The position numbers and the translations under genes are program-made. This document shows, one piece after another, positions 3,891-33,797 of a stretch of DNA of 46,358 bases (the stretch's first letter is position 1; each line of letters opens with the position of its first letter). Location: contig JAJZTK010000012.1 in assembly GCA_021849045.1 (NCBI GenBank), positions 1 through 46,358 of the forward strand, read 5' to 3'. The notes under the pieces were generated by a model. The model was not told the DNA's origin. It saw only the letters and a list, made by a program, of their open reading frames with translations, and did not search any database. The DNA is from Deltaproteobacteria bacterium (GTDB lineage Bacteria; Desulfobacterota; Desulfuromonadia; Geobacterales; DSM-12255).

Positions 3891-4057
3891 TGCTGGAGCG
3901 CAAGGCGGCCGTTGTTCAGCCGCTGGATGAGGTCAAGGTGAAGGTGAAGGGGCTCGTGAAGCAGGAGAAGGGGCTGAAGGAGCTGCAGCCGCTGGTGAGG
4001 AAGCTGCGGGACGGGGCGCGGGTGGAGTTGCGGCTGGTGGGGGACGGATGTGAGTGA
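3891..4057 (+). pseudogene. Fragment of a second peptidyl-prolyl isomerase 3' end
   Basis: This stretch repeats the 3' end of the isomerase gene (2838-2998) in the same orientation. There are about 12 base differences over roughly 150 aligned bases and an exact core of more than 50 bp. It encodes LLERKAAVVQPLDEVKVKVKG and ends LRLVGDGCE-stop. No start, signal peptide or catalytic domain precedes it, and similarity stops abruptly at 3891. It is therefore either the tail of a tandem paralogue whose body was replaced by the FitAB module, or a partial duplication made when the module arrived. Its stop overlaps the GTG start of the next gene (GTGAGTGA). Confidence 0.85.
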
Positions 4058-5291: not shown

Positions 5292-6538
5292 GCCTCAAAC
5301 GAGGCGTGTTTCTCAGTTTTACCGATCAAGCTCTGCTCAGTGCAACCAACTTTCTGGTTGGCCTTTTTGTCCTGCGGCATGTCCCGAAAAGTGCTTATGG
5401 CGAGTACATCTTCGCCGGTGCCGTGCTTCTTTTTCTCGCCGGGGTGCAAAACGCCGTGGCCATTACCCCGTTGACTGTTCTGGCGCCCGACAAGGGGAAA
5501 AGTGAAGCGGAGTTTCGTTCGGCGTTGGCCACTGGGCAGTTATTATTGCTCCTGCCTTTTTCGTTTATTCTTCTGCTCATTGGCTGGGGTGGGGGGCATT
5601 TTGACCTTTTCAGTAAGGGGATGGCAACAATTCTGCTGGTGGCCGGAATTGTCGCGCCGGGATTCCTGTTGCGGGAGTTGGTGCGGGGGATGCTCTTTCA
5701 ACGTTTGCGGGTTGGTACGGCACTGCTAGGTGACCTGATGGCGACGCTGCTGCTGGCGGGTGGTCTCCAGGTAGTGGGGAAGATCCTGCCGGACCAACTC
5801 CATCTGGGGGCGCTGTTTGTTACCGGTGGGGCAGCGTTGGTGGCCGGTGTCCTGTTTGCTGTTCCAGCCGGAACTCTGATCTGCAGCCGCTGGGGCGAGA
5901 TTACGGCTGCCCTGTCCGAGGCCTGGCAGCACGGCCGCTGGGCCTTGAGTGGAGTGGTGATCACCTGGTTGCAGGATCAAAGCTATATCTATCTGCTGAC
6001 CTTTCTGCTGGGGGCGGCCGGGACGGCTGACGCGAGTGCTGCTCGTCTGTTCCTGGCACCGGCCTCGTTGGTGATCGCCAGTTTTGGTCGAGTTCTCCTG
6101 CCGACTTTGGCCAGGCTGCACCACGAACGGCAGAGTCTTCGGTTTCGTCGGGTTGCCGGTAAAGGCCTTCTGGTTGTTGCCACAACGGTTGGCTGTTATG
6201 TGCTGGTGATTGCCGCAACGGCGGACCATCTGGCGGCCGCCTTTTTGCCGGCCAGTTATGGTGGTCTGCGGTGGATGGTACTGCTCTGGGGAGCATGTAC
6301 GCTCGTCCAGGTATTTCGTGGCCATTTTTCCTGGCTTCTACAGGCCAGCCGCTGCTTTCGGCCGATAACGATGGCTAACGCCCTAAGTAGCGTGGTGACT
6401 TTGCTGAGCGGAGCGCTGTTAATCAGCAGGTACGGTCCGGCCGGTGGGGTTGCTGCTTTGATCGTTGGCGAACTCGTTCTTACCGGGCTTCTTTGGAGGG
6501 TGGAGCGCAGGAGTGGTGATGGCGATGCTATCGATTGA
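5288..6538 (+). CDS. Wzx-type polysaccharide flippase (unit 1)
   Basis: The 416-residue polytopic membrane protein has long hydrophobic helices throughout and few charged loops. The N-terminus (FTDQALLSATNFLVGLFV) is typical of the Wzx / polysaccharide-transporter (MOP) superfamily. It is expected to move undecaprenyl-linked repeat units from the cytoplasmic to the periplasmic face. A TTG start is chosen because GGAGG stands just upstream and the preceding stop overlaps it (TTGA); no better ATG lies near. It is the first of two Wzx-like genes in the window (see 20708). Confidence 0.8.
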   Translation: MSLKRGVFLSFTDQALLSATNFLVGLFVLRHVPKSAYGEYIFAGAVLLFLAGVQNAVAITPLTVLAPDKGKSEAEFRSALATGQLLLLLPFSFILLLIGWGGGHFDLFSKGMATILLVAGIVAPGFLLRELVRGMLFQRLRVGTALLGDLMATLLLAGGLQVVGKILPDQLHLGALFVTGGAALVAGVLFAVPAGTLICSRWGEITAALSEAWQHGRWALSGVVITWLQDQSYIYLLTFLLGAAGTADASAARLFLAPASLVIASFGRVLLPTLARLHHERQSLRFRRVAGKGLLVVATTVGCYVLVIAATADHLAAAFLPASYGGLRWMVLLWGACTLVQVFRGHFSWLLQASRCFRPITMANALSSVVTLLSGALLISRYGPAGGVAALIVGELVLTGLLWRVERRSGDGDAID

Positions 6539-7427
6539 CATTTGCATCGCCACCTTTCGCCGGCCTGAACTGCTGGCGGCATTGCTGGCGAGCTTGGAGG
6601 CACAGGTACTACCGGTGGAGTTGGAGGTCCGGGTGATCGTAGTGGACAACGACGCTGGTGAAACGGCCAGACCGGTGGTAACAAACCATAGCCAAAGCTC
6701 TCGTTTCAAAGTTTTGTATGCCGTGGAGCCGGTGCAGAACATCGCCTTGGCCCGCAACCGTGGGGTGGCTTTTGCAGAAGGCGACTATCTTGCCTTCATC
6801 GATGACGATGAACAGGCGGCCCCCGACTGGCTAATCCAGCTCCTGGCCGCCAGGCAGCGTTTTGAGGCAGATGTGGTATTCGGGGCGGTCGAGTATCGAC
6901 TTCCTCCCCAAGCGGCACCCTGGATCAGGCGTGGGAGGTTTTTCGCCGGGCCTAGGCACAATTCCGGAACCGTTGTGTCAACAGGAGGTTTTGGAAATGT
7001 CCTGATTCGGGGCGCTCTGCTGCGGGCTACCCCTGGTCCCTGCAATCAGTCGTTCGGGCTTTCCGGAGGCGAGGACCATGAACTCTTTACCAGACTTCGT
7101 CTTCATGGTGCACGTTTAGTCTGGTGTGATGAAGCGGTTGTCTGGGAACAGGTGGGAGCAGAGCGCGTTCGGGTTTCCTACCTCGCTCGACGCGCACTAC
7201 GGAGCGGGCAGGCATTTGCCGCTGTCACCCTTAAACGGCTATCTCCGCCAGCCAGGATAAACTGGTTCGTGTGCCGTCTGTTGCTCTTTCTGCTGGCAGT
7301 TACGGCCATGCCGGTTGGCTGGCTGCTGCGTTACCACTGGGGTGTCAGGTCTCTTATGAAGGCCTGTGCCAACCTGGGACAACTCTCGGCGCTCTTTGGC
7401 TGCAGGTATCGACAATATGCAGAGTAA
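6519..7427 (+). CDS. Family 2 glycosyltransferase
   Basis: The 302-residue protein has a GT-A fold N-terminus (SIDICIATFRRPELL), a VIVVDND nucleotide-binding strand, the metal-binding FIDDDEQ motif and a GGEDHEL segment typical of inverting family-2 enzymes. A hydrophobic C-terminal helix (LLLFLLAVTAMPVGWLL) suggests membrane attachment. The ATG at 6519 is preceded by AGGAG (6509-6513) and overlaps the flippase stop by 20 bp. A second ATG at 6525 is possible. It should add one sugar to the lipid-linked unit; donor and acceptor cannot be told from the sequence. Confidence 0.85.
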   Translation: MAMLSIDICIATFRRPELLAALLASLEAQVLPVELEVRVIVVDNDAGETARPVVTNHSQSSRFKVLYAVEPVQNIALARNRGVAFAEGDYLAFIDDDEQAAPDWLIQLLAARQRFEADVVFGAVEYRLPPQAAPWIRRGRFFAGPRHNSGTVVSTGGFGNVLIRGALLRATPGPCNQSFGLSGGEDHELFTRLRLHGARLVWCDEAVVWEQVGAERVRVSYLARRALRSGQAFAAVTLKRLSPPARINWFVCRLLLFLLAVTAMPVGWLLRYHWGVRSLMKACANLGQLSALFGCRYRQYAE

Positions 7428-8742
7428 AATGATAGCTCCCATGCCCACAGAATTGGATAAGTGTCTTGGTTGGCGGGATGCCATATATGTCCTGCCGTTA
7501 TTCCTGGCTCTTTTCGCCACCGTATTTTCGCCGCACAAGCCGCTGCAGAACGTTGTCGCAAACACCATTCTTCAGGCTGAAGGTTATCGAACCTGGATGT
7601 TTGGCGGAATTTATCTGCTGGCGGCACTCCTGGTGCTCACCCGGTTTACCACTGCCATGCGTCAGGTCGCTCGCCATGTGCCATACCTTTTATTTCTCGT
7701 CTTTGTTGTCTGGTCTGTCACTTGGTCCGCCCACCCTGAGAAGGTGCTCATCACCTGGGGACATTACCTGGGGTTTTATCTGATCTGTCTTTCGGCCGTT
7801 GTTGCGCTTGAATGGAGGGAGTGGAGCTTCTACAACCTGTTCTTCGCCTATGGGACGATTGCCGTCGTAGCCACGCTGGTGATCGTGGTTTTTTTCCCGG
7901 ACCGGGGCATTGTGGATGTGGGCGGCAAGTTGCGTTGGCTCGGGTTCACCAATTCGCCAAACTCTCTTGGGGTCATGATGCTGGTGACAGTCTGGGTCTG
8001 TATGATCTGGATCAGCGCTTGCCGGGCTTGGTTAGTGAAATTGCTGGTCGGATTACTTTTGTTGCCAGTGTTTTTTTGTATCTATGGCTCGGACAGCATG
8101 ACCTCCGCAATTCTTGCGGTTCTGGTCGTTCTGTTGGTGCCGGTGCTTATGAGTATTTGCGCGCTTTCCCCTAGTCGGGCGGCCGGACTTTTTGGCGGGT
8201 TCTTGCTCCTGACAACTGTGGCGGTGCTGATACTGTATGTGGCCTTGCCGGAACTGTTTGTAGCAAAAAGTGTGCTTGGAAATCTAACACTTATTGGGCG
8301 TAGCGCAACCTTTACAGGCCGGACTTCTCTCTGGACGGTTGCCCTCCAGGCCATAAGTGAGCGGCCTTTGCTGGGTTGGAGCTTCGATGCCTTATATTCC
8401 GTGGGGGATCGGTTTATTGTCAGGGCTTCACATTTCCATAACGGTTATCTGGAACTGTTGGTCACCGGTGGGTCTGTCGGTTTGTCGCTAATACTCACCT
8501 TGGTCGGGATAGTTGTCTGGCGAATCATTATTCTCCAGCGAGTCCTGCCCCGTTTGGCTGCGGCAATGGCGGTGCTATTGATGCTTATATTGCTGCACAA
8601 CCTGGCGGAGGCATCTTTGGGGCGGACACCGACACTCCTCTGGCTTATCTTCACACTGATGTATCTGGTATTGGCCCAAAAACCGCCGACCGACGTGACA
8701 GAACTGCCGCCAGAGTGCACTGGCGGCAGTTCTGTCAAGTGA
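7417..8742 (+). CDS. O-antigen polymerase/ligase-like membrane protein (unit 1)
   Basis: The product has about 441 residues and roughly a dozen predicted membrane helices. A Wzy_C/WaaL-like segment (SATFTGRTSLWTVALQAI, LLGWSFDALY, HFHNGYLELL) matches the O-antigen ligase superfamily pattern: a conserved Arg in the first part and the HNxYLE-like His in the second. It probably polymerises repeat units or transfers glycan in the periplasm. The start is uncertain: ATG 7417 overlaps the GT2 stop by 11 bp, and ATG 7429 is preceded by AGAG. The last codons fall inside a perfect 18-bp hairpin. Confidence 0.8.
   Translation: MQSKMIAPMPTELDKCLGWRDAIYVLPLFLALFATVFSPHKPLQNVVANTILQAEGYRTWMFGGIYLLAALLVLTRFTTAMRQVARHVPYLLFLVFVVWSVTWSAHPEKVLITWGHYLGFYLICLSAVVALEWREWSFYNLFFAYGTIAVVATLVIVVFFPDRGIVDVGGKLRWLGFTNSPNSLGVMMLVTVWVCMIWISACRAWLVKLLVGLLLLPVFFCIYGSDSMTSAILAVLVVLLVPVLMSICALSPSRAAGLFGGFLLLTTVAVLILYVALPELFVAKSVLGNLTLIGRSATFTGRTSLWTVALQAISERPLLGWSFDALYSVGDRFIVRASHFHNGYLELLVTGGSVGLSLILTLVGIVVWRIIILQRVLPRLAAAMAVLLMLILLHNLAEASLGRTPTLLWLIFTLMYLVLAQKPPTDVTELPPECTGGSSVK
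8696..8737 (+). other. Perfect 18-bp inverted repeat at gene junction
   Basis: TGACAGAACTGCCGCCAG (8696-8713) and its exact reverse complement (8720-8737) flank the 6-base loop AGTGCA. The GC-rich stem ends five bases before the end of the Wzy-like stop codon and 13 bases before the next ATG. It has no trailing T-run, so it is not a classical intrinsic terminator. It could act as an RNA-processing or stability element, or dampen translation of the following methyltransferase gene. Confidence 0.8.
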
Positions 8743-17593: not shown

Positions 17594-18463
17594 GTGCAGA
17601 TAAAAAAAGCCGTGTTCCCTGTCGCCGGTCTCGGCACCCGCTTTCTGCCGGCCACCAAGGCATCCCCCAAGGAGATGCTTCCGCTCATCGATAAGCCGCT
17701 GGTTCAGTACGTGGTCGAGGAGGCGGTCGCTTCCGGCATCGAGCAGATTCTTTTTGTCACCGGCCGGAGCAAGCGGGCCATCGAGGACCATTTCGACATC
17801 GCCTTCGAGCTGGAATCGCTGCTCTCCAACAAAGGAAAGGACGCTGAACTCTCCCAGGTGCGGGACATCGCCGAGATGGTGGACATTTTTTACGTACGGC
17901 AGAAACAGGCCATGGGGCTTGGTCATGCAGTCCTCTGTGCCCGCGATTTCGTCGGCAACGAGCCGTTTGCCGTGCTACTCGGCGACGATATCATCGACTC
18001 GCCCGCTCCCTGTCTGGGGCAACTGCTGGATGTATACAGGAAATACCGGGGAACGGTCCTTGCCCTCGAAAGGGTACCAATGGAGAACATCTCTTCCTAT
18101 GGGTGCGTTCAGGCAAACCCGATCTACAAGAAGGTATTCGAAGTGACCGACCTTGTTGAGAAGCCTAAACCTGAAGAGGCTCCGTCCGATATGGCCATCA
18201 TTGGCCGCTATGTGCTCACACCGGATATCTTTCCGATCCTGGAGCGGCAAAAGCCGGGCAAGGGTGGAGAGATCCAGCTCACCGATGCCATTCTCCAGCT
18301 TTCCAGTAATGAGGCCATTTATGGCTGCCTGTTCGACGGCATCCGTCATGATTGTGGTGACAAGATGGGGTTTCTGAAGGCCACAGTTGATCTGGCCCTG
18401 AAACGTGAGGAGTTTAATGGTGAGTTCCGGAAATTTCTGCAGGAGCGGCTGGGTTGTTGCTAG
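17594..18463 (+). CDS. galU: UTP-glucose-1-phosphate uridylyltransferase
   Basis: The 289-residue protein has the GalU signature GLGTRFLPATKASPKEMLP (12-30), KPLVQYVVEEA, the QAMGLGHAV segment and LLGDDIIDSP. It forms UDP-glucose from glucose-1-phosphate and UTP in the cytoplasm. It begins with GTG, 21 bp after glmS, with GAGGAG upstream. Its 3' end overlaps the following YdcF-like gene by 47 bp, so the three genes are probably one transcript. Confidence 0.95.
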   Translation: MQIKKAVFPVAGLGTRFLPATKASPKEMLPLIDKPLVQYVVEEAVASGIEQILFVTGRSKRAIEDHFDIAFELESLLSNKGKDAELSQVRDIAEMVDIFYVRQKQAMGLGHAVLCARDFVGNEPFAVLLGDDIIDSPAPCLGQLLDVYRKYRGTVLALERVPMENISSYGCVQANPIYKKVFEVTDLVEKPKPEEAPSDMAIIGRYVLTPDIFPILERQKPGKGGEIQLTDAILQLSSNEAIYGCLFDGIRHDCGDKMGFLKATVDLALKREEFNGEFRKFLQERLGCC

Positions 18464-19073
18464 CAGACTTGTCTCAGTGGTTTTATTTCTTTTCGTGGTG
18501 CTGCCATTAATGGGGCTCAGTCTTGCCAACACACTGTTGGTGACGCGACAGAAGCCACACAAAGCCGATGCAATCGTCGTGCTTGGCGGCGAGAATACGA
18601 GTCGGGCGGAGCAGTCAGCTGCCCTTTACAAACGGGGATATGCCACGAGGATTTTGGTCACTGGTAAAAACGAAGATAAGTTGATTGTGAAGAGTCTGGT
18701 CGCTGCTGGGGTGCCAAAGGAAGCTGTTTGGGTTGAACCGGCTGCAACTAGCACCTTTGAGAATGCTTTGTTCAGCGTGCCGATTCTTAAGCAATGGAAG
18801 GTGAAGACTGTTCTCCTCGTGACATCATGTTTCCACTCGCGGCGAGCGACTGCGGTCTTCAGATCCAACACCGGCACAATCGAATTTTTTTCTGTTCCAG
18901 CGGATAATGTCCCCGTTGCGGAAGTGATCAAGAACAGATGGCTACGAGAGCGTGTGCTGATGGAATATGTGAAGATTATTGGCTACTGGTTCAAGTATGG
19001 CATTTCTCCCTTTAACGACTTTGCGGTGACCTCCCTGCGCCTACCGGGGAATGAGATCAAGTGCTCATTGTGA
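18417..19073 (+). CDS. YdcF/ElyC-like DUF218 membrane-anchored protein
   Basis: The 218-residue protein has one N-terminal membrane helix (LVSVVLFLFVVLPLMGLSLANTL written in part) and a DUF218 domain with the typical ADAIVVLGGENTSRAEQSAAL start, ILVTG, TSTFENALF and LLVTSCFHSRRA segments. Such proteins (SanA, ElyC, YdcF) act in envelope or lipid-carrier metabolism, but the reaction is unsettled. GAGGAG at 18407-18412 fixes the ATG inside the galU 3' end. It overlaps the next gene by 13 bp. Confidence 0.82.
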   Translation: MVSSGNFCRSGWVVASRLVSVVLFLFVVLPLMGLSLANTLLVTRQKPHKADAIVVLGGENTSRAEQSAALYKRGYATRILVTGKNEDKLIVKSLVAAGVPKEAVWVEPAATSTFENALFSVPILKQWKVKTVLLVTSCFHSRRATAVFRSNTGTIEFFSVPADNVPVAEVIKNRWLRERVLMEYVKIIGYWFKYGISPFNDFAVTSLRLPGNEIKCSL

Positions 19074-20689
19074 CAAGGATCTTATGTCTGATTTGCGGAC
19101 TTTTGACCATCCTGATTTCTGAGGCTGGAATCGGATTTGCCAGTGAAAAAATAGGTACAACTGCAGAAGAAATTCGCCGTGAAGCCATGCTTCCAAATGA
19201 CAGTGAGTCAGGCTTTCCCCTACCGTTGGCCGCCCATTGGAATACTGGCTGGAGAGAGGGAGGATTCAGCCCTGATTATCAGCTCCAGATGATTGAGAGG
19301 GGACATTATTTACTTCCCTGGTTTTACCTGCCATCTCCATGGGATACGGATTGGATCTCACGTAACGGATACTACGAAAAAACCATTAAAAAATTTGCAG
19401 AACTGAAAATTCCCCTATCATTTATAAGCAGCCAGTGGGAGCGGTATCTTACGGATTCACCGAAATACCGGCATCTGCCGAGGCAAGAAAATCCAAATGT
19501 CGTGGATGAACACGGCACTATCCATAAGAAAGTTTCGCCCTTCGGCCCAGAGGCTTTGTGGCGTGAGGTGGGAGAGAAGTGGACATCCTCCACGATTGTT
19601 CGAAGAGTTCAGGAATGGTATCCAGACCCCCCTCTGGTGCTTTTTGTCTCAAACAATGAACACGACAAGCTTGCATGGCACGAAGTTGGGCAATCCGCCA
19701 GATACCTTGAGGCATATGGACCCGGACACGATGACAACTTCAAGCGAAAAGTTGTGGGCGATGGCTGGATCAAGCGTTACCGTGCCTTACAAGGCGGCAT
19801 GCGGTCAGGGTTGATTGCTCCCGGATGGCAAAAACATGCAAATTTTGTCGCCTATGATGCGTTGGGGACAAGAGCGTACGGCAGATGGCCTGACTGGATT
19901 AAGTATTCGCTTATCTCACCAGGTCGAATGGAACCCTGGCCATTGGCATGGGACGGCGTCTCATTGTCTTATTACGTAAACAATTGGAGTCCGGACACTG
20001 ATCACACCGTGATGAGCCCCCAGATCGAGGCCATGAACTGGATATTCATGCGGGATGAGGCCTGGCGTTTGAACCCGGGTTTCTGGGTTGAGATGTCCAC
20101 CTGGGATGGACACGAACCAGGCTCAGCCAATGACAAAAGAGAATACTACAGAAAGTCTGGGACAGAATTCAGCCCGGCACGATACGAAGGCTATGTGCAG
20201 TTCGGCATGTGGCTGTTAAGGCCACGGGTGGTTCGTGAATTCAGGAATCATCTGTCAAAAGTAACCAAGGATGAATCATATTTTATTTCAGTAGTCAACT
20301 CAGTCGACCGGGTGCATGACAACCCGATCTTAAGAAAGTTTTGGAGAAAAGGGAAACTGGTTGCGAATTATAATAATAGGCATCCATATCAAACAAAGAT
20401 ACCAAGCGAGTACAACGCTGTTGATAGATGGTTTTTTCTGGATACCAACCTTGATCCGAAACGCCCATGGGCATTAACTACGTACATTCCCGTATTTTCC
20501 ATTGCCTTGGTCATTGGTACTGCACCGGAGCGTGAATGGCTTGTTTACGCGCATTCTCCACTGAAAAGTTTTGGCAATGTCAGGGTTACCATCCCTGATT
20601 ACGCTCCAGTCGATATTAGTGTTTCACCAAGCGGTTCATTTTATTCTGTAATGGAAAAGAATAAAGTAATAACAAAGATTGTAAATTAG
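19061..20689 (+). CDS. Unrecognised secreted protein, possibly a glycosidase
   Basis: The 542-residue protein starts with a GTG overlapping the YdcF-like gene and has a signal peptide (ILCLICGLLTILISEAGIGFA). I do not recognise a named family. It is rich in Trp/Tyr and has alternating beta and alpha segments such as LPLAAHWNTGWREGG, LLPWFYLPSPW, LVLFVSNNEHDKL (E200) and PGFWVEMSTWDGHEP (E344). The spacing of an Asn-Glu and a later Glu at strand ends resembles clan GH-A TIM-barrel hydrolases. A compact all-beta C-terminus (VRVTIPDYAPVDISVSPSG) follows. A carbohydrate-cleaving role in the periplasm is an inference from this and from the locus. Confidence 0.6.
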   Translation: MLIVTRILCLICGLLTILISEAGIGFASEKIGTTAEEIRREAMLPNDSESGFPLPLAAHWNTGWREGGFSPDYQLQMIERGHYLLPWFYLPSPWDTDWISRNGYYEKTIKKFAELKIPLSFISSQWERYLTDSPKYRHLPRQENPNVVDEHGTIHKKVSPFGPEALWREVGEKWTSSTIVRRVQEWYPDPPLVLFVSNNEHDKLAWHEVGQSARYLEAYGPGHDDNFKRKVVGDGWIKRYRALQGGMRSGLIAPGWQKHANFVAYDALGTRAYGRWPDWIKYSLISPGRMEPWPLAWDGVSLSYYVNNWSPDTDHTVMSPQIEAMNWIFMRDEAWRLNPGFWVEMSTWDGHEPGSANDKREYYRKSGTEFSPARYEGYVQFGMWLLRPRVVREFRNHLSKVTKDESYFISVVNSVDRVHDNPILRKFWRKGKLVANYNNRHPYQTKIPSEYNAVDRWFFLDTNLDPKRPWALTTYIPVFSIALVIGTAPEREWLVYAHSPLKSFGNVRVTIPDYAPVDISVSPSGSFYSVMEKNKVITKIVN

Positions 20690-20707
20690 CCTTATTAGGT
20701 GGCCACG

Positions 20708-22096
20708 ATGTTAATTTCCACCATTATAAATACGATGCCACCTTTTCTGCGATCGAGAATTGCCCGGGTTGAATCATCTCCTTTGGGCAAACGACTGGCG
20801 AAGGGTGCATTCTGGAGCTTATTGGGCGCGCTTGCCTCGCGTGGGCTGAATATGGCTGCCATGATGATTTTGGCCCGCATCCTGGGAAAGAATGAGTTTG
20901 GCGAAATCGGCGTCATCCAAAGCACCATGGGGATGGTGCAGACGCTTGCCGGGTTCGGACTGGGGTGGGCGGCAACCAAGTACGTGGCAGAGTTTCGTAA
21001 TAGCGACCCGGCAAAGGCCGGTAGAATTATTTCTTTTTCAAACCTCGCGGCGATAGGGACGGGCGGCCTGATGGCGCTTATCTTCTTCCTGGCCGCCCCT
21101 TGGTTGGCTGCAAACTCTCTCTCTGCTCCCCAACTGAGCATTCCATTGCAAATTAGCAGCCTCATTCTATTGTTTGGTACCTTAGTCGGAACGCAAAACG
21201 GCATTCTTGCCGGGTTCGAGTCATTCCGGCTGCTGGCGAGAATAGGCGTTGTGAGTGGCATCGTCAGTCTGCCGTTAATAGTTGGCGGTGCTTGGATTGC
21301 TGGGGTGGAAGGTGCTGTTTGGGGCTTGATTGCGGCAAATCTTGTCAACTGGGTACTGAATTACAGGTGCCTAAGAGCAGAGGCCTTTAGGGCAGGCGTT
21401 CTGATGTCGCGAAAGGGGTGCTGGCAGGAACGGGCTCTTCTCTGGGAGTTCGGCTTGCCGACGATATTGGGAGGAACAGCTCTGAACGGAGCTACCTGGA
21501 TTGGTACGGTAATGCTTGTTAATCGCCCTGGTGGTTACGGAGAGATGGGTTTTTACAATGCGGCCAATCAATGGTTCAGCGCGCTACTTTTTTTGCCGGG
21601 AGTGATTGGGCAGGCTGCCATTCCTGTGCTTTCAGAACAAATTGGCAATAGGGATCATGATCGTTCAAAGAAGGTCCTGGTTAACTCGATCAAATTGAAT
21701 ATGGTGATCATCTTTCCTGTTGCAATCATTGGTTCTCTCTGTAGTCCGTGGATAATGACGCTGTACGGAAAAGATTTTGAGGCGGCATGGCCGACCCTGG
21801 TTGTTACTCTGATTGCCGCCGCGATTACTGCCGTGCAATCACCAGCGGCTCAAGTTTTAACTTCGTCAGGGAATATGTGGAAGGCAGCGATCATGAATGT
21901 GAGTTGGGCTTTGTCTTTTATCATTTTGTCGAAACTATTGTTGTCATGGGGGAGTTTAGGTTTGGGCACCGCACGAAGCGTGGCCTATCTGGTTTATTCC
22001 CTGTGGTCCATCAGATTTGCTTTAAAACTGATTGATCGACTTAAGAATCAGGTGATGAACGAAGTCAATAGTGAGGAAACATGCTTAGAACACTGA
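20708..22096 (+). CDS. Wzx-type polysaccharide flippase (unit 2)
   Basis: The 462-residue polytopic protein starts with KRLAKGAFWSLLGALASRG and contains ARILGKNEFGEIGVIQS and GLGWAATKYVAEFR, strong signs of the polysaccharide-synthesis/MATE-like flippase family. It should translocate undecaprenyl-PP-linked oligosaccharide. AGGTGG (20697-20702) favours ATG 20708 over an in-frame GTG at 20699. It is a second Wzx in the locus and does not resemble the first closely. It overlaps the acyltransferase gene by 16 bp. Confidence 0.88.
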   Translation: MLISTIINTMPPFLRSRIARVESSPLGKRLAKGAFWSLLGALASRGLNMAAMMILARILGKNEFGEIGVIQSTMGMVQTLAGFGLGWAATKYVAEFRNSDPAKAGRIISFSNLAAIGTGGLMALIFFLAAPWLAANSLSAPQLSIPLQISSLILLFGTLVGTQNGILAGFESFRLLARIGVVSGIVSLPLIVGGAWIAGVEGAVWGLIAANLVNWVLNYRCLRAEAFRAGVLMSRKGCWQERALLWEFGLPTILGGTALNGATWIGTVMLVNRPGGYGEMGFYNAANQWFSALLFLPGVIGQAAIPVLSEQIGNRDHDRSKKVLVNSIKLNMVIIFPVAIIGSLCSPWIMTLYGKDFEAAWPTLVVTLIAAAITAVQSPAAQVLTSSGNMWKAAIMNVSWALSFIILSKLLLSWGSLGLGTARSVAYLVYSLWSIRFALKLIDRLKNQVMNEVNSEETCLEH

Positions 22097-22672: not shown

Positions 22673-24469
22673 ATGTGCGGAATAGTAGCTTTGTATGCAT
22701 ACAACGATTCAAGTGCCAATATCGATAGAACCGAATTGCTTCAGATACGCGACCACATGACAACACGTGGGCCGGATGGTTCTGGTGACTGGATTTCAGC
22801 GGACGGGCGGGTTGGCTTTGGCCACCGGCGCCTTTCCATTATCGATCTTACTGAATCGGGCGCCCAACCCATGCAGAGTGAAGATGGAAGGTATGTCATA
22901 ACGTTTAACGGCGAAATTTATAATTACAAACAATTACGGGCTGATCTGGAAAAAAGGAATTACCGCTTTCGTTCTAACAGCGACACTGAAGTACTTCTGC
23001 ATCTTTATGATCTTAAAGGACCGGACATGGTGACTGCCCTGCGTGGTATGTATGCCTTTGCCATATGGGATCAGAAAAAACAGGGTGTGTTTATTGCGCG
23101 TGATCCTTTTGGCATCAAACCACTCTATATTGCCGATGACGGCAGTACTCTGCGCGTTGCCTCCCAGGTCAAGGCTCTACTGGCCGGCGGGCATATAGAC
23201 ACCTCACCGGAACCAGCCGGTCACGTCGGTTTTTTCTTGTGGGGGCACGTTCCAGAGCCTTATACGCTTTATAAGGGGATTCGTGCGCTGCCTGCAGGTT
23301 CTTGGCTGTGGATTGATAGGAACGGCAGAAGACAGAACCTATACTTTTCCCTATCCAATGAATTCAGGAATGCCGAACAATGTTCAGCCAGCGTGACGGC
23401 TGCTGATGTTCAGCAGGCTTTTCGCGAGGCGCTCCTGGACAGCGTGCGCCATCATCTTATTGCGGATGTTCCCGTTGGGCTGTTTCTTTCCGCTGGTCTT
23501 GATTCTACAGCGCTTACCGCCCTGGCGAGTGAGTTGACGAGTAGTCGACTCAATACGGTCACTCTAGGATTTAAGGAGTTCATCGGGACCGAAAATGATG
23601 AAGTCCCTCTCGCAGAGCTGGTAGCACAGAATTATAACACCATTCACCGGACAATCCGGGTCGAACAGAACGATTTTCAAGCAGATTTTACATCTTTGAT
23701 TGACGCTATGGACCAGCCCACCGTCGATGGTGTGAACAGTTTCTTTGTCTGCAAGGCAGCGGCACTGGCAGGTTTGAAAGTAGCCATATCAGGGCTTGGC
23801 GCAGATGAACTTTTTGGCGGCTACTCAAATTTTACGGAGATTCCCAAGGTGGTGTCGTGGTGCTCACCGTTAAATTATTTACCCGGCATTGGCAAAGGCT
23901 TTCGTATTGTTTCAGCTCCCATCCTCAGACAGTTTGTTTCGCCCAAATACGCCGGTATCTTCGAGTATGGAAGCAACTTTGAAGGGGCATATCTCCTTCG
24001 GCGGGGAATGTATATGCCTTGGGAGTTACCAGAAATGATCGATGCTGAAATGGTAAAACAAGGCTGGAAAGAACTACAGACAATTGCTGCCATAAAAGTG
24101 TCAATTGATGGCATAAAGAATGACCGCTTTAAAGTTTCGGCCATGGAGATGAATTGGTATATGCGGAACCAACTGCTCCGTGATGTAGATTGGGCGAGTA
24201 TGGCGCATTCTCTGGAAGTCAGAGTGCCGTTTGTTGATGTCCAGTTATTAAAATCGTTAGCACCTATTATGAAATCCGACAATAAAAGCTACAAATTGGC
24301 TATGGCCAAATCACCAGTACAGGCCCTACCTGACGCAGTACTTTACAGGAGAAAAACAGGATTTTCTATTCCAGTAAAAGAATGGATAATGAATGAAGAC
24401 AAACTAAAGGCTGAGAATGGATCACGAAGCTGGGCCAAACACATATATTCAAATTTAGTACCTAAATAA
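22673..24469 (+). CDS. asnB: AsnB-type glutamine amidotransferase
   Basis: The 598-residue protein resembles glutamine-hydrolysing asparagine synthetase. The class II glutaminase domain has Cys2 (MCGIVALYAY), TRGPDGSGDW and FNGEIYNY. The synthetase domain has the PPi loop SAGLDS (273-278) and ISGLGADELFGGY. In exosortase-linked and O-antigen loci such genes (eps_aminotran / WbpS-like) are thought to amidate sugar carboxyl groups rather than aspartate. The UDP-HexNAc dehydrogenase at 14278 could provide the uronic acid. It is separated from the previous gene by 58 bp, with no clear promoter visible. Confidence 0.88.
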   Translation: MCGIVALYAYNDSSANIDRTELLQIRDHMTTRGPDGSGDWISADGRVGFGHRRLSIIDLTESGAQPMQSEDGRYVITFNGEIYNYKQLRADLEKRNYRFRSNSDTEVLLHLYDLKGPDMVTALRGMYAFAIWDQKKQGVFIARDPFGIKPLYIADDGSTLRVASQVKALLAGGHIDTSPEPAGHVGFFLWGHVPEPYTLYKGIRALPAGSWLWIDRNGRRQNLYFSLSNEFRNAEQCSASVTAADVQQAFREALLDSVRHHLIADVPVGLFLSAGLDSTALTALASELTSSRLNTVTLGFKEFIGTENDEVPLAELVAQNYNTIHRTIRVEQNDFQADFTSLIDAMDQPTVDGVNSFFVCKAAALAGLKVAISGLGADELFGGYSNFTEIPKVVSWCSPLNYLPGIGKGFRIVSAPILRQFVSPKYAGIFEYGSNFEGAYLLRRGMYMPWELPEMIDAEMVKQGWKELQTIAAIKVSIDGIKNDRFKVSAMEMNWYMRNQLLRDVDWASMAHSLEVRVPFVDVQLLKSLAPIMKSDNKSYKLAMAKSPVQALPDAVLYRRKTGFSIPVKEWIMNEDKLKAENGSRSWAKHIYSNLVPK

Positions 24470-24504: not shown

Positions 24505-25854
24505 ATGTATAGTTATAGTAATTATAAATCTAGTGCAAAACTGATCTTTTCATTTTTACTGTTACTATGCATTCTTGCACTTGAAAAACATGTTGTCAGT
24601 TTCGTGTATATACTTATATGTATCTGGGCTTTGTTCGGTGCAAAGCAGGCTATTAAAGGGCTCACAATCAATTATGTAATACTTCTCCTTAACCCAGTTG
24701 TATTCAAACTGCCTGGAGAAGTCAGCGGACTACGCTGGCTTGTTCTTTTTATCGCCGGACTTCGGGTCATGCCCTTAGTTTCCAGGAGGGTGCTTTACTC
24801 GTTAATCTCCCTTTTATTATTCTATCTGGTCGTGGTTGTGCTTGCGTGGATGGAAAGCCCCAGTTTTTTAATATCAATTCTTAAAATTACGATGTTTACT
24901 TTCGGTGCCGGTGTTTTCTTGATTGCATTTTCCTGTCTCGATAAATCTGAACTGGATGATTTCAGAAGATGGTTTTTTTGTTTAGTAGCGGCATTAATGA
25001 TCTTATCCCTGCCAACACTACTCATTCCCAGAATTGGTTTTGCTGTCAACGGATCAGGTTTTCAAGGCATTTTAAACCATCCCCAAGCCTTTGCATTGTT
25101 CGTAGTGCCGATTGCAACATATCTGATAGCCGACCTGCTACTTAAGAAGGAACGTAGCAGCAGCTGGCTGTGGGCAATTGGAGCTCTCTTCTCTTTCCTG
25201 CTTTATATGTCGCGGGCGCGAACTGCAATGGTGACGCTTTTCCTGAGTCTCGGTTCGGCATTTGTTTTTGCTTCCATAAGTTCGCGAAAAGAAAAACTGG
25301 ATTTGGCACCAGTCGGTTCCATCATGAAAATAGGGATGTTTGCTCTTCTGCTGGCGACTTTGACGCTATTGTCGCCGGCATTTTCCGAATCGATGTCCAA
25401 ATTCTGGTTAAAAGGGTCGAATAAGTCTGCCACAGTTGGAAAGGCTTTTAGCGAGTCGCGCGGCAAGGGAATAGATTATTTCTGGAACCGCTTTCTTGAC
25501 AAGCCGTTGACAGGCCAGGGGTTTGGTGTCGAAGAGGGTATTTTGACTGAGAAAAATGTCACGACATTTCTAGGAATTCCAATTTCTGCCACTGTTGAAA
25601 AAGGTTTTTTGCCCGCAGCTTTCTTGGAGGAAGTGGGAATCATTGGGATGCTCCTTTTTCTGCCTTTTTTTTTGGCTTTGCTCTATGGAGCGACCCATAC
25701 ATGTGATGTCAGGCTAATGGCGATGTTTTTTTCCTGCCTTTTCGTCAACATCGGTGAAGCGGTGTTTTTTTCTCCCGGGCAGATTGGCGGCTATCTATGG
25801 CTTATTCTTGGGTTTACCACTTGTAAAGGCTGGAGTGAAGCAAATGAAAAATGA
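24505..25854 (+). CDS. O-antigen polymerase-like membrane protein (unit 2)
   Basis: The 449-residue protein has about ten hydrophobic segments and a large extracytoplasmic loop in its C-terminal half, typical of Wzy/O-antigen ligase-like proteins. Segments such as LNHPQAFALFVVPIA, YMSRARTAMVTLFLSLG and GKGIDYFWNRFLDKPLTGQGFG are consistent with this class. It is a second Wzy candidate besides 7417. The gene and its flanks are clearly AT-rich (24470-24620), unlike fnlA-fnlC, which suggests separate ancestry. Polymerase activity is inferred from topology and position. Confidence 0.72.
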   Translation: MYSYSNYKSSAKLIFSFLLLLCILALEKHVVSFVYILICIWALFGAKQAIKGLTINYVILLLNPVVFKLPGEVSGLRWLVLFIAGLRVMPLVSRRVLYSLISLLLFYLVVVVLAWMESPSFLISILKITMFTFGAGVFLIAFSCLDKSELDDFRRWFFCLVAALMILSLPTLLIPRIGFAVNGSGFQGILNHPQAFALFVVPIATYLIADLLLKKERSSSWLWAIGALFSFLLYMSRARTAMVTLFLSLGSAFVFASISSRKEKLDLAPVGSIMKIGMFALLLATLTLLSPAFSESMSKFWLKGSNKSATVGKAFSESRGKGIDYFWNRFLDKPLTGQGFGVEEGILTEKNVTTFLGIPISATVEKGFLPAAFLEEVGIIGMLLFLPFFLALLYGATHTCDVRLMAMFFSCLFVNIGEAVFFSPGQIGGYLWLILGFTTCKGWSEANEK

Positions 25855-26971
25855 GCGAATAGTGTTCTGGCAGGATATTCCCAGCCCTCACCAGGCCCCA
25901 TGGATACGGGCTTTGGCCGGACTGGTTCCTGATGCGGATATCGTTAGTGTATTCCAGCAGAGCGGTCTTCCTCAAGACAGAATTGCTCTCGGATGGCAGC
26001 CGCCACACTATGGGAACACGCGCATTCTGATTTCACCGGACAAATCAGAGGTTGATCAACTTATTCAAAGAAATGACTTTAATACGACACACATTTTTTC
26101 CAGCATGCTTGAAGATTCGGAAATATACGAACGGTTTCAGCTTGCCCTTTCATCAAAAGCTCGAGTAGGGGTGCTTTCCGAGGGCCGGGATTGGCGCGGT
26201 TGGAAAGGATTTTTACGACAGGCATACAAGGCCCGGCGAGAACACAGATTTCGTGAATCGGTTGATTTCGTATTGGCGATGGGACAGGTGGGCATTCAGT
26301 GGTTCGAGCGCTGTGGGTTTGACAAGGACAAATTATTTCCGTTCTGTTATGTCGTGGAGGCACCCGACAGTCAGGTTATGGGTTGTGACGATTCCAAATC
26401 GACCATACAGATGATCTCTGTTGGTCAGCTTATCAAGCGAAAACGGTTTGACCTGTTGCTTAAGGCGCTCACTAAGGTGCCTGCACAGGGTTGGGAGCTG
26501 AAAATCGTCGGTGACGGTGAGCTCAGGTATCAACTTGAAAAAATGGCGGCCGACTTAGGCCTAAGCGATAGAGTCGTGTTTACCGGCGTTTTGAATAATG
26601 TGCAGGTCAGAACCGTACTGGCACAAACTGACGTCTTTTTTCTTAACAGCCATTGGGATGGGTGGGGAGCGGTTGTCAATGAGGCTCTTATGGGCGGAGT
26701 TCCGGTTGTGTGCAGCGATTTCTGCGGAGCTGCGGACCTGGTCAGAGCTGATTTCAATGGAGAGATTTTTGAAAGTGGCAATGTCGATTCCCTTGCAACG
26801 ATTATAAATAAGTTTATTGAGCGTGGTCCGCTGCCATTGGCTAAGCGGGACCAGATAAGAACATGGTCCAAGGGTATTGAAGGCCCAACTGTTGCCCGGT
26901 ATTTTCTCGACATTCTGAAATTTATCGATGGGACTGACAACAAACGCCCCGTTCCACCTTGGAATGTCTGA
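25844..26971 (+). CDS. Family 4 glycosyltransferase
   Basis: The 375-residue GT-B protein has SVGQLIKRKRFDLLLKAL, LKIVGDGELRYQLE and the donor-site segment HWDGWGAVVNEALMGGVPVV. The N-terminal domain is less typical (ERIVFWQDIPSPHQAPWIRAL). The start is the ATG after GGAG with 8-bp spacing, overlapping the polymerase-like gene by 11 bp. It would add one sugar of the repeat unit. Confidence 0.86.
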   Translation: MKNERIVFWQDIPSPHQAPWIRALAGLVPDADIVSVFQQSGLPQDRIALGWQPPHYGNTRILISPDKSEVDQLIQRNDFNTTHIFSSMLEDSEIYERFQLALSSKARVGVLSEGRDWRGWKGFLRQAYKARREHRFRESVDFVLAMGQVGIQWFERCGFDKDKLFPFCYVVEAPDSQVMGCDDSKSTIQMISVGQLIKRKRFDLLLKALTKVPAQGWELKIVGDGELRYQLEKMAADLGLSDRVVFTGVLNNVQVRTVLAQTDVFFLNSHWDGWGAVVNEALMGGVPVVCSDFCGAADLVRADFNGEIFESGNVDSLATIINKFIERGPLPLAKRDQIRTWSKGIEGPTVARYFLDILKFIDGTDNKRPVPPWNV

Positions 26972-30408: not shown

Positions 30409-30478
30409 CCTTATCGTTTTTAACCTAACTATTGCCCCCCTGTAACATCATATACATGTAGGTCAGGTATGTTCGCCA
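30409..30478 (+). repeat. 70-bp direct repeat, copy 2 (contains recurrent element D)
   Basis: This is the partner of 29078-29147, without gaps. AACT at 30427, CC at 30435-30436 and TGTAAC at 30441-30446 are kept, as is the possible -10 TATGTT at 30468-30473. It stands about 40 bp upstream of fnlA and is the likely promoter of the fnlABC-GT operon. Confidence 0.8.
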
Positions 30479-30516
30479 ATGTTCTCCTGAACAGTTGGAG
30501 ATTTGGAGGGTATGTT

Positions 30517-31551
30517 ATGTTCGCAGGAAAGACGTTACTGATCACTGGCGGCACTGGCACCTTCGGCAATGCTGTATTGCGCCGGTTTCTCGATACGGAG
30601 ATCAAAGAGATCCGCATTTTCAGCCGTGACGAAAAGAAGCAGGAAGATCTGCGGATCGAACTGGCCAATCCGAAGGTGAAGTTCTACATCGGGGACATCC
30701 GCAATTACGACAGTATCCTGCCGGCCATGCAGGGGGTGGACTATGTGTTCCATGCCGCGGCGCTGAAGCAGGTGCCGTCGTGCGAGTTCTTCCCCATGGA
30801 GGCGGTGCGGACCAATGACCTGGGGGCCGAGAACGTGATGAACGCGGCGCTGGCCTGTCAGGTGCGCAATCTTATTGTTCTCAGCACCGACAAGGCAGTC
30901 TATCCGATCAACGCCATGGGAATCAGCAAGGCAATGATGGAGAAGCTGATGGTGGCCAAGGCCCGCATGTACGGGAATACGTCCACTGTCTTTTGCGGCA
31001 CCCGCTACGGCAATGTGATGGCCTCTCGCGGGTCGGTAATCCCGTTGTTTCTCAAACAGATTCAGGAGGGGACGCCCCTGACGATAACCGATCCGAACAT
31101 GACCCGCTTCATGATGACCATCGATGATGCGGTGGACTTGGTGCTCTACGCCTTCGAGAACGGCAACCCAGGCGATATCTTTGTACAGAAAGCCCCGGCG
31201 GCCACCATCCATACCCTGGCCGAGGCGATGCTGCGGCTTTTCCACGTCAGTAACGAAGTCAGGGTTATCGGTACCAGACACGGCGAGAAGCTTTATGAGA
31301 CGCTCCTCAACCGGGAAGAGATGGCCAAGGCCGAGGATATGGGAGGCTACTACCGAGTGCCGGCCGACGTCCGGGATCTGAATTACAATTGTTATTTCGT
31401 GGAAGGTCAGGAGGATGTGTCGCACATCGAGGATTACAATTCGCACAATACCCAGCGCCTCGATGTCGATGGGATGATGGCTCTGCTGCTGAAGCTGGAT
31501 ATCATCAGGGATGCCATGAAAGAGGAGAGGGTGTACCGGTATGCCAGCTGA
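30517..31551 (+). CDS. fnlA: UDP-GlcNAc 4,6-dehydratase/5-epimerase (FnlA/WbjB/CapE)
   Basis: The 344-residue SDR enzyme has the cofactor motif TGGTGTFGNAV (10-20), AALKQVPSCEF and STDKAVYPINAMGISKAMMEK. In the last, the usual YxxxK is replaced by MxxxK, as known for the CapE/FlaA1 group. It starts L-FucNAc synthesis by oxidising and dehydrating UDP-GlcNAc with C5 inversion. GGAGGG with 6-bp spacing selects this ATG. The next two genes are the expected FnlB and FnlC, which makes the assignment firm. It overlaps fnlB by 11 bp. Confidence 0.93.
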   Translation: MFAGKTLLITGGTGTFGNAVLRRFLDTEIKEIRIFSRDEKKQEDLRIELANPKVKFYIGDIRNYDSILPAMQGVDYVFHAAALKQVPSCEFFPMEAVRTNDLGAENVMNAALACQVRNLIVLSTDKAVYPINAMGISKAMMEKLMVAKARMYGNTSTVFCGTRYGNVMASRGSVIPLFLKQIQEGTPLTITDPNMTRFMMTIDDAVDLVLYAFENGNPGDIFVQKAPAATIHTLAEAMLRLFHVSNEVRVIGTRHGEKLYETLLNREEMAKAEDMGGYYRVPADVRDLNYNCYFVEGQEDVSHIEDYNSHNTQRLDVDGMMALLLKLDIIRDAMKEERVYRYAS

Positions 31552-32677
31552 GACCACGGTGCTCGTGACAGGCAGCAACGGTTTTGTCGGTCGCAATCTG
31601 CGAGTGGCGTTATCCCGCCTTGCCGATGTCAGAATCCTCTGTTTTGACCTGGAGGATGATCAGCAGGTACTAGCCAGTCACCTGCAGGATGCGGACGTCG
31701 TGTTCCATCTCGCCGGCGTGAACCGGCCGCAGCACGTGGAGGAATTCACCACCGGGAATGCAGGACTTACGCAGACGATGGTCTCCCTGTTGGAGCAGCA
31801 GGGACGGACTCCTGCCATTGTCATGACGTCATCCACCCAGGCTGCGCTGGACAATCCGTACGGAGCGAGCAAGAAAGCGGCCGAAGAGAGCCTGTTCGAA
31901 TATGGCGCCAGGACCGGGGCTCCGGTGTACGTCTATCGGCTGACCAACGTGTTCGGCAAATGGTCGCGGCCCAACTACAACTCGGTGGTTTCCACGTTCT
32001 GCTACAATATTTCCCATGGGCTTGACATTACCATGTCCAATCCGGCCAACGAGGTGGAACTGATCTATATTGACGATGTGGTCGCGGAGTTCGTCGCCGT
32101 CCTTGATGGAAGAAGAGATGCTTCTGCCACGCGCCTCGGTGTGGGACCCACCTACCGGGTCACTCTGGCGGAACTGGCGGAGAGGATCCACCGGTTCCGG
32201 GAGATCCGCACCACCCTTGAAATACCGGACCTTGCCGATGACCTGACGAGAAAGCTGCACGCCACGTATCTCTCATATCTGGAACCGACCGATTTTTCCT
32301 ATCCGCTGGACATAAAGACCGACAATCGCGGTGACCTGGCCGAATTGATCAAGTCGGCACATTTTGGTCAGATGTTTGTCTCCCGGACACACGGGGGGAT
32401 TACCCGCGGCAATCACTATCACGACACCAAGATCGAAAAATTCTGCGTCCTGCAGGGGGAGGCGGCCATTCGGTTTCGCCACGTTTTCACGGAAGATATC
32501 ATCGAATATCGGGTTTCCGGGACCACGTGGGAGGTGGTGGATATCCCCCCGGGCTACACACACCACATTGAGAACCTCTCGGACCAGGAGATGATTGTTC
32601 TCTTCTGGGCCAATCGGATTTTCGACCCGCTGCAGCCGGATACCACTTATTGCGAGGTGAAAGGTGGACAGAATTAA
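31541..32677 (+). CDS. fnlB: UDP-FucNAc pathway epimerase/reductase (FnlB/WbjC/CapF)
   Basis: The 378-residue two-domain protein begins with an SDR domain ([10 protein letters not shown], 10-19; NPYGASKK with Y107/K111). It ends with a cupin domain (about 250-378) with metal-ligand candidates in [11 protein letters not shown] (H292, H294). This architecture is characteristic of CapF/WbjC, which epimerises at C3 (cupin) and reduces at C4 (SDR) the product of FnlA to give UDP-L-TalNAc. It overlaps fnlA by 11 bp and fnlC by 14 bp. Confidence 0.93.
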
Positions 32678-33797
32678 GGTTATGACCGTGGTCGGCACTC
32701 GACCGGAGATCATTCGCCTGTCGAGAGTGCTGGCCAAACTGGACAAGCACGCTGATCATCTGCTGGTGCATACCGGCCAGAATTATGACTATGAACTGAA
32801 CGAAATTTTCTTTGCTGACCTGGAGATCAGGAAACCCGACTATTTTCTGGAAGCGGCCGGGACGAATGCCGCCGAAACCATCGGCCAGACCATCATCAAA
32901 CTGGACCCGGTGCTGGAGAAGGAGTGCCCCGATGCCCTGCTGATCCTAGGGGATACCAACAGCTGCCTGGCGGCCATCCCGGCCAAGCGGCGAAAAATCC
33001 CCATCTTCCACATGGAGGCGGGTAACCGTTGTTTCGATCAGCGTGTGCCGGAGGAGATCAACCGGAAGATCGTTGACCATATCAGCGACATCAACCTACC
33101 CTACAGCGTCATTTCGCGGGAGTATCTGCTGCGCGAGGGACTTTCCCCGGACAGGGTGATCAAGACCGGCAGCCCGATGTACGAGGTGTTGCACTACTAC
33201 CTTCCCAAGATCGAGCACTCTGCTGTTCTTGAGCAACACGGATTGCAGCCCCGGAACTACTTTGTCGTCAGTTGCCATCGGGAGGAAAACGTTGATTCCG
33301 AACGGAATCTTGATCGTTTTCTCGCAGTTCTGGAGAACCTTGTTGCCGAGTATGGCAAACGCGTAATCGTCACGACCCATCCGCGCATGAGGAAACGGCT
33401 GGAAACACGCGGCGCGCAGCTTGACCGGCGGATCGAACTGCACAAACCGTTCGGCCTGACGGACTATGTAAAACTGCAGATGCATGCGTACGCGGTGTTG
33501 TCGGACAGCGGCACCATCAACGAAGAATCGTCGATTCTCAATTTTCCGGCAGTGAACATCCGTGAGGCTCACGAGCGGCCGGAAGGGATGGAAGAAGGGG
33601 CAGTAATGATGACCGGCCTCGATTGGCAAACAGTCCATCAGGCACTGGAGATTCTGAAGACTCAGGGGCGGGGTAACGAGCGGACTCTGCAACTGGTGGA
33701 GGATTACAGCGTGCCGAACGTGTCTGACAAAATCATCCGTATCATCCTGAGCTATACGGAATATGTAAATCGCACCATCTGGCGTAAACACTGTTGA
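32664..33797 (+). CDS. fnlC: UDP-N-acetyl-hexosamine 2-epimerase (FnlC/WbjD/CapG)
   Basis: The 377-residue WecB-like protein has [46 protein letters not shown] and [11 protein letters not shown], all hallmarks of the 2-epimerase fold. In the order fnlA-fnlB-fnlC it performs the last step, UDP-L-TalNAc to UDP-L-FucNAc. GTG 32664 with GAGG upstream is preferred; ATG 32682 is a possible alternative. The product is the donor for the next GT4. Confidence 0.93.

What the first reader, a model, noticed from the sequence alone, without database searches (positions are those of the whole stretch)
19061..20689. Unrecognised secreted protein that may be a new glycosidase family
It has a signal peptide, is rich in aromatic residues and is embedded in EPS genes. 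Glu200 in a VSNNEHDK context and Glu344 in FWVEMSTWDG resemble the acid/base and nucleophile pair at strands 4 and 7 of clan GH-A barrels. No family is recognised by eye. Many EPS loci carry a hydrolase that trims their own polymer.
Basis: inference. Interest (0 to 1): 0.55.

Follow-up and report, generated by a model that had tools for sequence, protein, structure and literature searches.

The report
Unnamed sugar-cutting enzyme in slime locus
A bacterial gene set that builds a sugary outer coat carries a secreted protein that looks, from its predicted shape and two unchanging residues, like an unnamed family of sugar-chain-cutting enzymes, probably used to trim that coat.

Summary
The ORF (542 aa, GTG start) is a real gene: 17 relatives from its own phylum and from Planctomycetota-side genomes were aligned with it (28-53% identity). 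No Pfam, NCBIfam, PHROGs or PDB-sequence match was found. An AlphaFold2 model from 18 sequences (mean pLDDT 92.6, pTM 0.90) shows eight strands alternating with helices, then a C-terminal beta-sandwich. E200 lies just after strand 4 and E344 in strand 7. Of the protein's 61 Asp/Glu, only these two are invariant in all 18 rows. The best structural matches are clan GH-A glycosidases (GH164, GH42, GH35). In 3 of 3 own-phylum genomes with the gene, neighbours are polysaccharide-assembly genes; one glycosyltransferase is shared full-length by all three. Planctomycetota-side copies lack such neighbours; some sit near hydrolases or a sulfatase. Best reading: an undescribed clan-GH-A-type glycosidase family, recruited in this phylum to trim or clear the cell's own exopolysaccharide. 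Not shown: activity, substrate, Glu-Glu distance, absence from CAZy. One partial relative has Gln at 344, and a conservation test on strand ends went against expectation.

The parts
19061..20689 (+). Predicted secreted glycosidase of an unnamed family, 542 aa, GTG start
19061..19147 (+). Hydrophobic N-terminus, probable signal peptide (residues 1-29)
   Evidence: hydropathy; pLDDT about 60 for residues 1-30 against mostly 90+ afterwards
19220..20350 (+). Barrel domain, residues about 54-430 (strands 56-59, 87-89, 119-123, 193-197, 260-265, 299-305, 342-348, 390-393)
   Evidence: DSSP on the model; structural matches
19658..19660 (+). Codon of Glu200, proposed acid/base, three residues after strand 4 (S-N-N-E)
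   Evidence: invariant 18 of 18; same register as E141 of GH42 1kwg in a non-significant hhalign alignment
20090..20092 (+). Codon of Glu344, proposed nucleophile, in strand 7 (FWVEMSTWDG)
   Evidence: invariant 18 of 18; Gln in one partial relative, L025
20486..20686 (+). C-terminal beta-sandwich, residues about 476-542
   Evidence: six strands 479-540 in the model
18405..19073 (+). DUF218 protein, overlaps the start of the glycosidase gene by 13 bases
20699..22096 (+). Polysaccharide flippase (Polysacc_synt), directly downstream
22673..24469 (+). Asparagine-synthase-like amidotransferase; a relative lies in the L019 locus
24505..25854 (+). Wzy_C / O-antigen-ligase-like polymerase (below Pfam's gathering score); a relative lies next to the homologue in L018
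25754..26971 (+). GT4 glycosyltransferase 'GT4c', shared full length with both other own-phylum loci
30469..33797 (+). FnlA-like, WbcJ-like and UDP-GlcNAc 2-epimerase genes: probable N-acetyl-L-fucosamine supply (FnlA and WbcJ scores below NCBIfam cut-offs)
   Evidence: the FucNAc reading is inference

Best explanation
It is a secreted (periplasmic or extracellular) glycoside hydrolase of an undescribed family with the clan GH-A plan: an eight-stranded barrel with Glu200 after strand 4 as acid/base and Glu344 in strand 7 as nucleophile, working by double displacement with retention. In this organism it most likely cuts the exopolysaccharide that the surrounding locus makes, either to set chain length and release polymer or to clear polymer stranded in the periplasm, as PslG and PelA are reported to do. 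Shown here: real gene family, model fold, invariance of the two Glu, EPS-locus context in 3 of 3 own-phylum members. Inferred: catalysis, retention, the roles of the two Glu, the substrate and the physiological role.
For: Model from 18 sequences: pLDDT 92.6, pTM 0.90, with Glu at strands 4 and 7. Structural matches are GH-A enzymes: the four best Foldseek rows are beta-galactosidases, the first titled GH35 (E 3.5e-08); VIA top rows are GH164 beta-mannosidase (Z 15.1, rmsd 4.2, 367 aligned) and GH42-type beta-galactosidases (Z 15.0, rmsd 4.6, 373 aligned), tied within 1. E200 and E344 are the only invariant acidic residues in 18 of 18, and the Asn before the acid/base is kept in 17 of 18. Own-phylum loci: homologue beside Wzy_C, flippase and GT genes in G187 and G480 as in the window, with one GT4 full-length in all three (36% and 47%). 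Elsewhere some copies have carbohydrate-active neighbours: GH95 and sulfatase, GH16, GH42-like.
Against: No activity or substrate data. Glu-Glu distance not measured. hhalign to a GH42 alignment is not significant (P 0.11) and covers only strands 2-4, and a looser setting did not bring E344 onto the GH42 nucleophile. Conservation was higher at strand N-ends than at C-ends, where an active site should lie (0.70 against 0.56). Partial homologue L025 has Gln for E344. No conserved Arg appears at strand 2, which GH-A enzymes often have. EPS-context members are not shown to be one clade (30% of bootstrap trees). Foldseek TM-scores are only about 0.4 over the whole model.
Confidence: 0.68

Rival explanations
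1. A retaining transglycosylase: same barrel and two Glu, but it moves glycan pieces between chains or caps and branches the EPS rather than hydrolysing it.
For: A beta-1,2-glucosyltransferase of Ignavibacterium album is among the top structural rows (Z 14.7, rmsd 4.4, 393 aligned). The gene sits with polymerase and flippase genes in its own phylum.
Against: Fold alone does not separate the two. Relatives with catabolic-looking neighbours (GH95, GH16, sulfatase) fit hydrolysis better.
Confidence: 0.12
2. A substrate-assisted hexosaminidase: N198-x-E200 on strand 4 acts like the Asn/Asp-x-Glu pair of GH85/GH18-type enzymes on N-acetylated sugars, and E344 is only structural or substrate-binding.
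For: Position 198 is Asn in 16 and Asp in 2 of 18 members. The locus probably makes N-acetyl-fucosamine. PgaB, GH20 and hyaluronidase barrels score Z 12-13. The GH85/GH18 motif is recalled, not tested.
Against: E344 is invariant in 18 of 18, and the Asn directly before E200 (17 of 18) is the GH-A pattern. GH164 and GH42 stand about 2 Z above these barrels.
Confidence: 0.08
3. A catabolic glycosidase that merely landed in the EPS locus and degrades foreign glycans.
For: Planctomycetota-side copies are found with no relatives of seven window EPS-locus proteins nearby, some next to hydrolases. The family is patchy, e.g. 2 of 395 own-phylum genomes.
Against: 3 of 3 own-phylum copies, from different GTDB families (51-54% identical), all sit with Wzy_C, flippase and GT genes.
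Confidence: 0.08
4. A catalytically dead glycan-binding barrel that guides or caps the polymer.
For: L025 has Gln in place of E344; the E. coli PgaB C-terminal barrel is a structural match (Z 13.0).
Against: Both Glu are kept in 18 of 18 aligned members while the 59 other acidic positions vary or have gaps.
Confidence: 0.04

Closest known systems
GH164 (Bs164 beta-mannosidase) and GH42 beta-galactosidases, clan GH-A
   Same: (beta/alpha)8 barrel with Glu on strands 4 and 7 and a C-terminal beta domain; best VIA Z 15.1 and 15.0. Bs164 has E160 and E297 on strands 4 and 7 (PMC7105311, passages), spacing 137 against 144 here.
   Different: No detectable sequence similarity, 7-12% identity in structural alignment. 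The protein is 542 aa against 644-693 residues for the matched GH164/GH42 chains, too short to hold the roughly 220-residue domain B that Bs164 shares with GH42.
GH35 beta-galactosidases (7kmn; 8fa4 and 6tbk by recall)
   Same: Top Foldseek rows over nearly full length (E 3.5e-08 to 4.2e-07); clan GH-A (recalled).
   Different: 11-13% identity, TM about 0.4; no Pfam match.
EPS-locus hydrolases PslG and PelA and the lyase AlgL of Pseudomonas aeruginosa
   Same: Hydrolase gene inside a polysaccharide-synthesis cluster, thought to process or clear the polymer (PMC9075953 abstract and passages; PMC9894940 abstract).
   Different: Different families (PslG is GH39, recalled); here no activity is known, and the locus is exosortase-associated with two Wzy_C proteins.
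GHL10 protein in the same locus (window 4050-5291)
   Same: Another predicted glycosidase-type protein next to a flippase-like gene with a Wzy_C gene nearby.
   Different: PF02638 member; no relation found to this protein by hhalign (0.1%).

Membership tests
Clan GH-A | (beta/alpha)8 barrel | tested here: met
   eight strands alternating with helices, pLDDT 92.6; matches to GH-A structures
Clan GH-A | Catalytic Glu on strand 4 (acid/base) and strand 7 (nucleophile) | tested here: met
   positions by DSSP and invariance 18 of 18; catalytic roles not shown; Q344 in partial L025
Clan GH-A | Asn directly before the acid/base Glu | tested here: met
   17 of 18, His in L047; the motif is recalled
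Clan GH-A | Carboxylates about 5 A apart (retaining geometry) | not testable with these tools
   model coordinates are not released
Clan GH-A | Retention of anomeric configuration | not testable with these tools
   needs NMR
Clan GH-A | Arg on strand 2 touching the nucleophile (common, not universal; recalled, and Arg-73 touches the nucleophile in Bs164) | tested here: inconclusive
   no conserved Arg in the strand 2 stretch, but no superposition was possible
GH42 | Match to PF02449 | tested here: not met
   no match at E up to 1 for any of 9 members
GH164, GH35 and other families with solved structures | Sequence similarity to a member in the PDB | tested here: not met
   nothing but chance GTPase rows at E above 1
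Any CAZy family without Pfam model or structure | Match to a dbCAN/CAZy profile | not testable with these tools
EPS-locus glycosidase (PslG/PelA type, by role) | Gene inside a polysaccharide-synthesis locus | tested here: met
   also G187 and G480
EPS-locus glycosidase (PslG/PelA type, by role) | Cleaves the locus's own polymer | not testable with these tools
   needs purified EPS

The most novel reading that the evidence does not exclude
A new clan-GH-A family in which one branch has become a fixed partner of a Wzy-type polymerase and one particular GT4 glycosyltransferase, and cuts exactly the linkage that pair makes, so that it sets EPS chain length, while its relatives elsewhere use the same activity to feed on such polymers.
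Probability: 0.3. Interest if true: 0.62.

Novelty: new member of a known kind. Interest (0 to 1): 0.47.

Why it matters
It would add a sequence-unrelated family to the GH-A glycosidases with a predicted, residue-level mechanism that can be tested at once. It also extends the hydrolase-in-an-EPS-locus theme to an exosortase-type locus, and offers a candidate enzyme for cutting an unusual, probably FucNAc-containing bacterial polymer.

Tried and rejected
First model from 3 sequences was poor (pLDDT 48.7) and was not used. Sequence routes to a known family failed: Pfam (only DUF7587 at E 0.013 and DUF7661 at E 0.078, DUF7587 below its cut-off), NCBIfam, PHROGs, PDB sequences, plasmid and phage records, viral contigs. 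hhalign against one GH42-like neighbour (0.2%) and the window's GHL10 protein (0.1%) gave nothing. hhalign against five GH42 PDB sequences gave P 0.11 with E200 in the register of E141, but E344 not on E312: a hint only. Foldseek against viral models gave only two rows at E below 0.001, a phage tail protein and a giant-virus protein; not pursued.

A test that the C-terminal ends of the strands are more conserved than the N-terminal ends failed (0.56 against 0.70). A tree did not resolve whether the three EPS-locus members form one clade.

Rows left out of the 18-row alignment: L025 (partial at a contig end, large insertion, Gln at 344); the G628 second copy (L013/L016/L026, broken across frames); G1011 fragments (L042/L045); the G917 fragment (L043/L064). 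Kept although imperfect: L052 (N-terminus cut by the contig end) and L051 (about 60 residues missing before the W167 column).

Paper searches listed no paper that I recognised as describing this family from titles and abstract starts; that is weak evidence, since the protein has no name to search for. A family under a CAZy number cannot be excluded.

Full report
The observation. The ORF at 19061-20689 is 542 codons from a GTG start and overlaps the upstream DUF218 gene by 13 bases. It has a strongly hydrophobic N-terminus, 14.0% aromatic residues and 4.8% Trp, the largest Trp share of the 33 window proteins I listed. Two neighbours, Wzy2 and GT2b, have slightly more aromatics overall. E200 and E344 are at the stated positions.

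Family search. No Pfam family reaches its cut-off for this protein or for 9 members scanned one by one. NCBIfam and PHROGs gave no match. The PDB sequence set gave none for the protein and only chance GTPase rows above E 1 for the profile. Plasmid and phage records and viral contigs gave none.

Relatives and spread. Hits were 1 locus in genome contigs. In the own phylum they were 2 of 395 genomes (own included), 1 of 58 close relatives (the genome itself), 2 of 55 in the class of G187 and 2 of 336 with the profile. On the G444 side (L001's record is titled Phycisphaerae; labelled Planctomycetota) they were 6 of 392, 2 of 9, 2 of 29, 10 of 298, 3 of 38 and 12 of 368. These sets overlap, and some hits are fragments. 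Only these two phyla were searched at depth, so nothing is said about others.

Conservation. In the 18-row alignment A4 25 columns are invariant besides the start Met, and of the protein's 61 Asp/Glu only E200 and E344 are among them. D349 is kept in 17 with one gap. N199 is Asn in 17 of 18 (His in L047); N198 is Asn in 16 and Asp in 2. A counter-example outside the alignment is L025, a partial copy with a large insertion and Gln at position 344.

Structure. AlphaFold2 with the 18-row alignment gave pLDDT 92.6 and pTM 0.90, after a poor first model from 3 rows. The strands are 56-59, 87-89, 119-123, 193-197, 260-265, 299-305, 342-348 and 390-393, with helices between. E200 follows strand 4 by three residues and E344 is the third residue of strand 7. 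Six more strands (479-540) make a C-terminal beta-sandwich. The numbering of barrel strands is my reading of the DSSP line. Foldseek's four best PDB rows are beta-galactosidases, the first titled GH35 (E 3.5e-08 to 4.2e-07, TM about 0.4). VIA-align's best rows, tied within 1, are GH164 beta-mannosidase (Z 15.1), GH42-type beta-galactosidases (Z 15.0) and an Ignavibacterium beta-1,2-glucosyltransferase (Z 14.7). The GH164 paper places its catalytic E160 and E297 on strands 4 and 7 and assigns the family to clan GH-A on that ground (PMC7105311, passages seen). The same argument applies here. The distance between the two Glu could not be measured.

Tests that did not help or went against. hhalign with GH42 is not significant, although it puts E200 in the register of E141. 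Strand C-ends are not more conserved than N-ends. No conserved Arg is seen at strand 2.

Context. The window is an exosortase-type EPS locus: UDP-glucose dehydrogenase, GlmS-like and GalU proteins, two Wzy_C proteins, flippase(s), many glycosyltransferases, FnlA/WbcJ/2-epimerase-like genes, exosortase, a Wza-like export protein and Wzz. In G187 and G480, from other families of the phylum, the homologue (54% and 52%) again sits with a Wzy_C-type gene, a flippase and GT4s; G480 also has an asparagine synthase and G187 a sulfotransferase. The window's GT4c (25754-26971) has a full-length relative in both (36% and 47%). Whether this exceeds the background of GT4s was not tested. The window's Wzy2 finds a 35% relative beside the homologue in G187; the G480 Wzy_C protein was not matched by Wzy2 at E 1e-4. 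With seven EPS-locus queries (GT4c, DUF218, Wzy2, AsnB, hexapeptide transferase, acyltransferase, GHL10) no relative was found in the fetched Planctomycetota-side loci (the flippase was not among the queries). There I scanned 27 selected neighbours (7, 10 each); 12 of the 27 had no family at E 0.001. Among the others were a sulfatase and GH95 (L050), GH16 (L049), a GH42-like protein (L022), esterase-like proteins (L048, L021) and an N-acylglucosamine 2-epimerase (L001), but also proteins without a link to glycans, such as a 2-hydroxyacid dehydrogenase (L021) and a dehydrogenase E1 component (L053).

Interpretation. A GH-A-type barrel with a probable signal peptide and two invariant Glu, found beside polymerase and flippase genes, fits a glycosidase acting on the cell's own polymer, as described for PslG and PelA (PMC9075953 abstract and passages; PMC9894940 abstract). 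The fold and the residue pair are well supported (I would put about 0.85 on a GH-A-type active site); the role in EPS trimming is inference from context (about 0.65).

Novelty. Against the libraries available this is an unnamed family. CAZy itself could not be consulted, so 'new GH family' is not established. It is a new member of a known kind: clan-GH-A-type glycosidases, and hydrolases in EPS loci.

Noticed in passing
window 4050-5291, with 5288-6538 and 7366-8742: A GHL10 (PF02638) glycosidase-type protein sits next to a flippase-like gene with a Wzy_C gene nearby, so the window holds two separate hydrolase-flippase-Wzy sets.
   Followed up: partly
L025:4143-5972 (-): A partial homologue in G693 has Gln where the proposed nucleophile Glu344 should be, and a large insertion before strand 8; it could be an inactive or altered branch.
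   Followed up: partly
window 25754-26971; L018:12230-13444; L019:5797-6954: One GT4 glycosyltransferase is shared full-length by all three EPS loci that carry the glycosidase (36% and 47% identity); a possible maker of the linkage that is cut.
   Followed up: partly
L063:1492-3177 (-): The most distant aligned member (28% identity) has no hydrophobic N-terminus yet keeps both Glu, so it may be cytoplasmic or have a mis-set start.
   Followed up: no
L026 (G628 second copy) and L042/L045 (G1011): Apparent broken copies of the gene, split across frames, suggesting gene decay or assembly errors.
   Followed up: no
window 30469-33797: FnlA/WbcJ/UDP-GlcNAc 2-epimerase-like trio suggests N-acetyl-L-fucosamine in the polymer; the FnlA and WbcJ scores are below the NCBIfam cut-offs.
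   Followed up: no
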